From an uncultured Arenicella sp. (lineage in GTDB: Bacteria; Pseudomonadota; Gammaproteobacteria; Arenicellales; Arenicellaceae): a DNA stretch of 64,000 bases. This document shows positions 28,999 through 29,904 of the stretch, one piece after another (positions within the stretch are counted from its first letter, which is position 1; each line of letters starts with the position of its first letter). The notes under the pieces are model-generated. The model ran no database searches, was not told the DNA's origin, and worked only from the letters and a program-made list of their open reading frames with translations. The translations under genes were made by a program, and so were the position numbers. The stretch is from the NCBI GenBank assembly GCA_938045295.1, contig CALINO010000001.1:1-64000 (forward strand). The letters are read 5' to 3'.

Positions 28999-29100
28999 AC
29001 TTAATAATTCCAAGAACAGTTGCACACGCCGTGAGCATGAAACATGTCTATGAATGTGGTAGCAGGAGCAGGTCACGAGCCCGCTTTAAAGACGTTAGAG
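28999..29100 (+). repeat. Degenerate attC before the beta-lactamase gene
   Basis: ACTTAATAATTCC...GAGCCCGCTTTAAAGACGTTAGAG; R'' clear, R' degenerate. Confidence 0.5.
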
Positions 29101-29113
29101 GAGCATTAATAAA

Positions 29114-29872
29114 ATGAGAAGCACACCACTTTTATACATACTTGTACTCGCTTTTTCAAAAATCACTTTTGCCGAAGAGCTGTTACCAGACTTAAAAGTA
29201 GAAAAAATTGAAGACGGTGTTTATCTTCACACATCATTTGAAAAAGTTGAAGGGTGGGGGCTTGTCGCATCAAATGGGCTAGTAGTGCTTGATAATAAAG
29301 ATGCTTATATTATTGACACGCCAATGAGGGCTGAGGATACGGAAGCACTTGTACAATGGGTTCAAGATAATGGCTTTATTGCCAAGGCAAGCATTTCGAC
29401 ACACTTTCACGGTGATAGCGCTGCGGGTATCCCATACCTTAATTCTGTATCGATTCCTACGTATGCCTCAAAACTAACGAATGAGTTGATTCATAAAGAA
29501 GATCGGGAGCAGGCCAAATACTCTTTTGATAGTACTAGCTATTGGTTAGTTGAAGACAAAATTGAAGTGTTTTACCCCGGCGCAGGTCACACTAAAGACA
29601 ATGTGGTTGTCTGGATGCCTGATAAAAAAGTCCTGTTCGGCGGTTGTTTTGTAAAGCATAAGAGTCTTGGTTATTTAGGCGATTCTGTATTAGAAAGCTG
29701 GCCTGCATCCGCTGAAAAATTGCTATCCAAATATGCCTCTGTAAAACTTGTTGTTCCAGGTCATGGGGCGGTTGGCGACATATCATTATTGGAAGAGACA
29801 AAGAGGCTAGCCGTTGAAGGTGTCGTTTCTCGTAAATCACCCCAGCATGATCATAACGCATCTTCTGATTAA
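29114..29872 (+). CDS. Subclass B1 metallo-beta-lactamase, IMP/DIM/SIM-like
   Basis: Signal peptide; zinc ligands HFHGD, GHTKDN, GGCF, PGHG; long collinear blocks resembling IMP (GVYLHTSFEKVEGWG, SIPTYASKLTNEL, YWLVEDKIEVFYPGAGHTKDNVVVW, KVLFGGCFVK, KLVVPGHGAVGDISLL). Confidence 0.93.
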   Translation: MRSTPLLYILVLAFSKITFAEELLPDLKVEKIEDGVYLHTSFEKVEGWGLVASNGLVVLDNKDAYIIDTPMRAEDTEALVQWVQDNGFIAKASISTHFHGDSAAGIPYLNSVSIPTYASKLTNELIHKEDREQAKYSFDSTSYWLVEDKIEVFYPGAGHTKDNVVVWMPDKKVLFGGCFVKHKSLGYLGDSVLESWPASAEKLLSKYASVKLVVPGHGAVGDISLLEETKRLAVEGVVSRKSPQHDHNASSD

Positions 29873-29904
29873 AGCGTTGTGCATTAACAGAATAGAGACT
29901 CTGT

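What the first reader, a model, noticed from the sequence alone, without database searches (positions are those of the whole stretch)
29094..29881. IMP-like class B1 metallo-beta-lactamase carried as a cassette in a chromosomal integron
Seen directly: all B1 zinc ligands (HFHGD, GHTKDN, GGCF, PGHG) and extended blocks that, compared with my memory of IMP-1, align almost gap-free (GVYLHTSFEKVEGWG, SIPTYASKLTNEL, YWLVEDKIEVFYPGAGHTKDNVVVW, KVLFGGCFVK). Known: IMP/DIM/SIM-type carbapenemases circulate as cassettes in clinical mobile integrons and their source is unresolved. Inference: this is an environmental relative already in cassette form, in an array with its own intI, so a plausible reservoir or sister lineage.
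Basis: partly seen in the sequence, partly recalled or inferred. Interest (0 to 1): 0.92.

Follow-up and report, generated by a model that had tools for sequence, protein, structure and literature searches.

The report
IMP-clade carbapenemase relative in chromosomal integron
An unnamed, probably environmental gammaproteobacterium carries, inside its own chromosomal gene-capturing array (integron), an intact gene for a relative of the IMP/KHM enzymes that destroy last-resort carbapenem antibiotics; it is a sister lineage rather than their direct ancestor, and it no longer looks like a freely movable cassette.

Summary
The gene is real: ORF 29114-29872 (+), 252 aa, encodes a subclass B1 metallo-beta-lactamase with every zinc ligand and a signal-peptide-like N-terminus. 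It falls in the IMP/SIM/KHM clade (support 100/98), forming with two MAG genes (70-71% identity) a lineage (99/97) separate from KHM-1 (59%), IMP (56-58%) and SIM-1 (57%). It fits no named NCBIfam family. dN/dS near 0.25 indicates purifying selection. Activity is untested.

The integron is real: intI 21394-22359 (-), a LexA-type box, an attI core shared with a congener, and cassettes with attC sites. A same-genus species has 35 near-identical attC sites behind its intI.

'As a cassette' holds only in part. bla begins 13 nt after a decayed attC of the genus' own type (28999-29100; 0 of 5000 shuffles score as high), but no attC follows it. The next relic is a weak half-site at 32774-32792. A 96%-identical copy of the last part of bla (107 nt) lies 1.8 kb downstream (31573-31679), so two alleles probably recombined here.

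It is a plausible reservoir or sister lineage, not the source of clinical blaIMP; excision as a single-gene cassette looks unlikely today. Novelty lies in lineage and setting, not in kind.

The parts
29114..29872 (+). bla gene: subclass B1 metallo-beta-lactamase, 252 aa, signal-peptide-like N-terminus (MRSTPLLYILVLAFSKITFA/EE)
21394..22359 (-). intI, integron integrase (321 aa), intact, RHSFATHLL and IYTH motifs aligned with IntI1
   Evidence: TIGR02249 414 bits, cut-off 265; 45% to IntI1 and 69% to the integrase of congener G017
22378..22393 (.). LexA/SOS-type box CTGTATATTTATACAG upstream of intI
   Evidence: the SOS role follows from known integron biology, not tested here
22653..22666 (+). 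attI core CTAATAAGCTGTTA, conserved next to intI in G017
23332..23412 (+). attC 1, genus type, intact
   Evidence: CM 79.9 bits, E 2e-18
23980..24057 (+). attC 2, genus type, intact
   Evidence: CM 61.2 bits, E 2e-13
24400..24606 (+). attC 3, split by about 130 nt that resembles the start of a transposase gene
   Evidence: nhmmer E 3e-4 for the 5' part; translation
25113..25188 (+). attC 4, another attC type
   Evidence: motif and structure scans; weak in the CM
27653..27759 (+). attC 5, another type, long stem
   Evidence: 13 bits; assignment rests on position and structure
28480..28585 (+). attC 6, another type, after the DUF3291 gene
   Evidence: 12.6 bits
28740..28994 (+). DUF2164 gene, cassette directly upstream of bla
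   Evidence: Pfam PF09932 E 3.7e-24
28999..29100 (+). decayed genus-type attC between the DUF2164 gene and bla; last base of R'' changed (ACTTAAT), R' GTTAGAG kept
   Evidence: nhmmer with the G017 attC profile: full length, 10.1 bits, E 0.051 in 64 kb, fourth hit; 0 of 5000 dinucleotide shuffles reach it; CM 15.6 bits
29905..30339 (+). small membrane-protein-like ORF 33 nt after bla; no Pfam family
   Evidence: homologues in two congeners
30512..30528 (+). terminator-like hairpin with T tract
   Evidence: consensus match only
30620..31486 (+). putative esterase (PF00756)
31573..31679 (+). second, partial copy of the 3' end of bla, 96% identical over 107 nt; weaker match goes on to about 31714
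31749..32711 (+). alpha/beta hydrolase gene
32774..32792 (+). possible attC half-site relic between the hydrolase and NIPSNAP genes
   Evidence: 1 of 1000 shuffles as good; E 3.6 in 64 kb: weak
32844..33149 (+). NIPSNAP-family gene, last gene of the AT-rich array
   Evidence: PF07978; GC profile

Best explanation
The window holds a chromosomal integron of the kind native to this genus, and bla is a long-resident gene in its older, distal part. The product is most likely a secreted, di-zinc subclass B1 beta-lactamase that hydrolyses beta-lactams including carbapenems, as IMP and KHM-1 do. bla, or an ancestor, probably entered by IntI-mediated insertion: its 5' end lies where a cassette should begin after the attC of the DUF2164 cassette. 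It has since become fixed by decay of that attC, absence of an attC behind bla, and a rearrangement with a second bla allele that left a 3' fragment 1.8 kb downstream. Shown: gene, clade, intI, intact attC sites, decayed upstream attC, 3' duplication, purifying selection. Inferred: activity, secretion, entry by IntI, order of events.
For: Clade 100/98 with IMP/SIM/KHM; own lineage 99/97 with L003 and L004. All ligands present; IMP-like predicted fold. dN/dS 0.25 against both relatives. intI, attI, LexA-type box, attC sites. G017 of the same genus has 35 near-identical attC sites, and 14 of 22 genomes of the family have an integrase above the cut-off. Decayed attC upstream of bla: 0 of 5000 shuffles. 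Array GC 0.36-0.42 against 0.48-0.50 in much of the flanks. Flanking cysI and rimO are found in 18 and 16 of 19 genomes of the genus, so the contig is chromosomal.
Against: No attC is detectable between bla and the next genes, so entry as a single-gene cassette is not proven. The upstream attC is degraded and only borderline in a whole-window search (E 0.051). The closest homologue with clear surroundings (L003) lies between an HTH regulator gene and cytochrome-like genes, with no integron integrase above the cut-off in its MAG, so the lineage does not need integrons. No activity has been measured.
Confidence: 0.6

Rival explanations
1. bla arrived in the array region by homologous or illegitimate recombination, as part of a larger block (bla, membrane protein, esterase, hydrolase), and lies beside a decayed attC by accident; IntI never moved it. 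The enzyme itself is the same.
For: No attC after bla. The 3' end of bla is duplicated around the membrane-protein/esterase block, the layout a single crossover between two bla-bearing DNAs would leave. A terminator-like hairpin follows the membrane protein gene. L003 shows a related bla outside an integron.
Against: The upstream attC ends 13 nt before the start codon, where a cassette would begin. The block lies within the AT-rich array, and a weak attC relic lies on its far side.
Confidence: 0.27
2. bla is a fully functional single-gene integron cassette.
For: Active-looking intI with attI and intact attC sites nearby; an attC-type boundary directly before bla.
Against: No attC follows bla: nothing scores in the intergenic regions 30340-30620 and 31487-31749, and the gap 29873-29904 is too short to hold one. 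The upstream site has lost the conserved C of its R'' box (sequence).
Confidence: 0.05
3. The protein is a B1-fold enzyme with another physiological role and little beta-lactamase activity.
For: No activity data. Five of 19 genomes of the genus carry diverse B1 genes, which may suggest a native function.
Against: 57-59% identity to KHM-1, IMP and SIM with every ligand and the active-site Lys and Trp columns kept. PMC5637372 reports 6 of 8 chromosomal B1 genes even from other phyla hydrolysing imipenem in E. coli.
Confidence: 0.08

Closest known systems
KHM-1 (acquired B1 enzyme on Enterobacterales plasmids)
   Same: Same clade; best bit score among the plasmid records listed (314 bits, 59.3%); best NCBIfam model is KHM/HMB
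   Different: 41% different; below the KHM and KHM/HMB cut-offs; on the plasmid read here blaKHM-1 is followed by a VOC gene and no intI1 is annotated in the 8.7 kb read
IMP family (IMP-1, -8, -14) and SIM-1
   Same: Same clade, same ligands, gap-free alignment of the core, predicted fold matches IMP crystals best
   Different: 56.5-58.5% and 56.9% identity; below curated cut-offs (348 against 460 bits; 323 against 560); those genes sit in class 1 integrons with their own attC
HMB-1/-2/-3
   Same: Shares the KHM/HMB model group; the HMB-3 authors point to Cellvibrio chitinivorans (87%) as a possible origin, an environmental gammaproteobacterium (PMC13148013)
   Different: HMB model score 340 against a cut-off of 500; no HMB sequence was at hand for the tree
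L003 (Cellvibrionales MAG) and L004 (Kangiellaceae MAG) genes
   Same: Nearest relatives, 71% and 70% over the whole alignment
   Different: L003 is not in an integron; the L004 MAG has three integrase matches above the cut-off, one partial and one with an internal stop, but an attC next to its bla was not demonstrated
Environmental chromosomal B1 enzymes PST-1 and AMM-1
   Same: Chromosomal B1 enzymes related to KHM/IMP/VMB (PMC5637372, PMC12238668)
   Different: Both are described without an adjacent integron; here intI, attI and attC sites lie in the same array

Membership tests
Subclass B1 metallo-beta-lactamase | Zn ligands His116, His118, His196 and Asp120, Cys221, His263 | tested here: met
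   All present in the alignment with IMP, KHM, SIM, VIM, NDM
Subclass B1 metallo-beta-lactamase | Curated model score | tested here: met
   NF033088 248.3 bits, cut-off 200
Subclass B1 metallo-beta-lactamase | Beta-lactam hydrolysis | not testable with these tools
   Needs an assay
DIM/SIM/IMP umbrella model | NF012145 cut-off 288 bits | tested here: met
   343.6 bits
IMP family proper | NF012147 cut-off 460 bits; groups with IMP in a tree | tested here: not met
   347.7 bits; outside IMP+SIM, which form their own clade at 99/97
KHM or HMB family | Cut-offs NF041632 480, NF041161 500, NF012148 450 bits | tested here: not met
   373, 340 and 381 bits; 59.3% to KHM-1
Chromosomal integron | intI, attI, tandem cassettes with attC, chromosomal flanks | tested here: met
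Integron gene cassette (bla itself) | Starts at an attC or attI crossover point | tested here: inconclusive
   Decayed attC ends 13 nt before ATG; 0 of 5000 shuffles as good, but E 0.051 over the whole window
Integron gene cassette (bla itself) | Own attC directly downstream | tested here: not met
   None found by motif scan, profile HMM or covariance model
Integron gene cassette (bla itself) | IntI-mediated excision | not testable with these tools
   Needs a bench assay

The most novel reading that the evidence does not exclude
Integrons of environmental gammaproteobacteria of this kind are where the IMP/SIM/KHM clade was turned into cassettes: this bla is a surviving, decayed relative of the event, and close relatives with intact attC sites exist unsampled.
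Probability: 0.15. Interest if true: 0.88.

Novelty: new member of a known kind. Interest (0 to 1): 0.55.

Why it matters
The origins of mobile B1 carbapenemases are unresolved (PMC5637372), and resistance cassettes are thought to stem from chromosomal integrons (PMC8352920). Here an unnamed third lineage of the IMP/SIM/KHM clade sits within the array of a native chromosomal integron, next to an attC of the genus' own type. This gives a concrete group of organisms in which to look for cassette-form relatives. It also shows that one genus holds B1 genes branching beside GIM, TMB, NDM and IMP/KHM.

Tried and rejected
Stem-energy scans for attC do not separate true sites from background and were dropped as evidence on their own. 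A candidate attC at 31428-31536 with perfect R boxes is no better than background by stem energy and runs into the esterase gene: rejected. Candidates at 28665-28716, 29741-29882, and an R''/R' pair noticed by eye around 29882-30007 overlap coding sequence or lack stems: rejected. The similarity of the short leader before bla in the window, L003, L004, IMP and SIM is partly the ribosome-binding site and occurs in non-cassette L003, so it is not used as proof of a shared cassette boundary. L004 intergenic repeats were not shown to be attC. No relative in viral contigs. No open paper was found describing such a gene in a chromosomal integron, which is weak evidence because most subscription journals are not in the library.

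Full report
Observation. The ORF at 29114-29872 (+) starts with ATG and encodes 252 aa. The best PDB matches are IMP chains (E 2.7e-92, no gaps in the core). NCBIfam gives KHM/HMB 380.6, IMP 347.7 and SIM 323.1 bits, all below their curated cut-offs (450, 460, 560), while the umbrella model DIM/SIM/IMP (343.6 against 288) and the B1 model (248.3 against 200) are passed. In plasmid records the nearest are KHM-1 (59.3%, 314 bits) and IMP-14 (61.3% over 95% of the query, 302 bits). The gene is present once in the genome, plus a fragment at 31564-31683.

What the protein is. A maximum-likelihood tree places it with genes of a Cellvibrionales MAG (L003, 71%) and a Kangiellaceae MAG (L004, 70%) at 99/97. 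These three, KHM-1, and IMP+SIM form a clade at 100/98, and the order of the three branches is open. Identities: KHM-1 59.3, IMP-14 58.5, IMP-8 58.1, SIM-1 56.9, IMP-1 56.5, GIM-1 48.6, TMB-1 48.5, VIM-1 32.2, NDM-1 30.0%. With a 70% family cut-off, as used in PMC5637372, it is outside every named family compared here. All zinc ligands are present. dN/dS is about 0.25 with L003 and L004, so the gene is kept by selection. The AlphaFold model (mean pLDDT 79.7) matches IMP-18 and IMP-1 first. The N-terminus looks like a signal peptide (read from the sequence). Hydrolysis of carbapenems is inferred from these relationships.

The integron. intI lies at 21394-22359 (-), TIGR02249 414 bits, 45% identical to IntI1 and 69% to the integrase of congener G017. 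A LexA-type box lies at 22378-22393, and an attI core at 22653-22666 is shared with G017. G017 has an array with 35 near-identical attC sites, and 14 of 22 genomes in the family have an integrase above the cut-off. Two window attC sites are plainly of the genus type (CM 79.9 and 61.2 bits); a third is split by about 130 nt; three more at 25113, 27653 and 28480 are of other types and rest on motif, structure and position. The array is AT-rich compared with its flanks. cysI on one side and rimO on the other are found in 18 and 16 of 19 genomes of the genus. bla of this lineage was found in only this one of the 19, and no trace of the array or bla was found next to cysI or rimO in G014, G007 or G001 in the stretches read.

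Is bla a cassette? Between the DUF2164 gene and bla, 28999-29100, lies a full-length but decayed attC of the genus type. With a profile of the G017 sites it is the fourth-best hit in the window (10.1 bits, E 0.051), and none of 5000 dinucleotide shuffles of this intergenic stretch reaches it (best 7.2). It ends 13 nt before the start codon. Behind bla no attC was found by the motif scan, profile HMM or covariance model. The next relic, at 32774-32792, is weak (1 of 1000 shuffles; E 3.6). So bla has a cassette-like start but no cassette end.

The duplication. A stretch of 107 nt from the 3' part of bla (29747-29853) reappears at 31573-31679 with 96% identity, with weaker similarity for about 35 nt further and different sequence after that. 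The 1826-nt spacing encloses the membrane-protein and esterase genes. The sharp change from 96% to weaker similarity fits recombination between two diverged bla alleles better than a plain recent duplication (inference).

Surroundings of the relatives. L003 lies between an HTH regulator gene and cytochrome-like genes, and its MAG has no integrase above the cut-off. The MAG of L004 has three integrase matches above the cut-off, one partial and one with an internal stop; a neighbour of its bla weakly resembles a protein encoded in an array of that MAG, but no attC was found at bla.

Known work. Environmental chromosomal B1 enzymes near IMP/KHM are known: PST-1 (54% to KHM-1; PMC5637372) and AMM-1 (PMC12238668). 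A possible Cellvibrio origin was proposed for HMB (PMC13148013). Resistance cassettes are thought to come from chromosomal integrons (PMC8352920). The present case joins these lines: an IMP/SIM/KHM-clade gene within a native integron array. It does not identify the source of clinical blaIMP.

Limits. Only selected B1 families could be put in the tree; HMB, BIM, PST, DIM and VMB were compared only through NCBIfam models. The genome is in 92 contigs. CM E-values are rough (short calibration).

Noticed in passing
L005 (G002), L006 (G018), L007 (G017), L008 (G011): Four congeners carry B1 genes of other lineages: beside GIM-1 (50%), TMB-1 (56%) and NDM-1 (39-40%). With the window gene, 5 of 19 genomes of one genus hold B1 genes from four branches. 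No clear attC lies near them.
   Followed up: partly
window 31573-31714: Partial second copy of the bla 3' end, 96% over 107 nt, between the esterase and hydrolase genes.
   Followed up: partly
window 24455-24597: About 130 nt with an ORF start MGQTKKRHYERYTLAFKLQAVKLANHP, resembling a transposase N-terminus (from memory), interrupts an attC site.
   Followed up: partly
window 16821-17177 (-); L051 4747-5106: A VOC-family protein of the window is 61% identical (70 of 114) to the VOC protein encoded directly after blaKHM-1 on a plasmid.
   Followed up: no
L038 (G017 contig C1): Array with 35 near-identical attC sites over about 15 kb; cassette contents not examined.
   Followed up: no
window 25194-27614: LysR regulator, flavodoxin-fold reductase and SDR gene lie between two attC-like sites, one gene in reverse: an unusually large multi-gene unit for a cassette.
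   Followed up: no
window 22666-24405: The first three cassette proteins match no Pfam or PADLOC model.
   Followed up: partly
L004 4919-6893: An interspersed repeat of about 80 nt (72% identity between two copies, a third seen by eye) lies in the intergenic regions around the L004 bla; nature unknown.
   Followed up: partly
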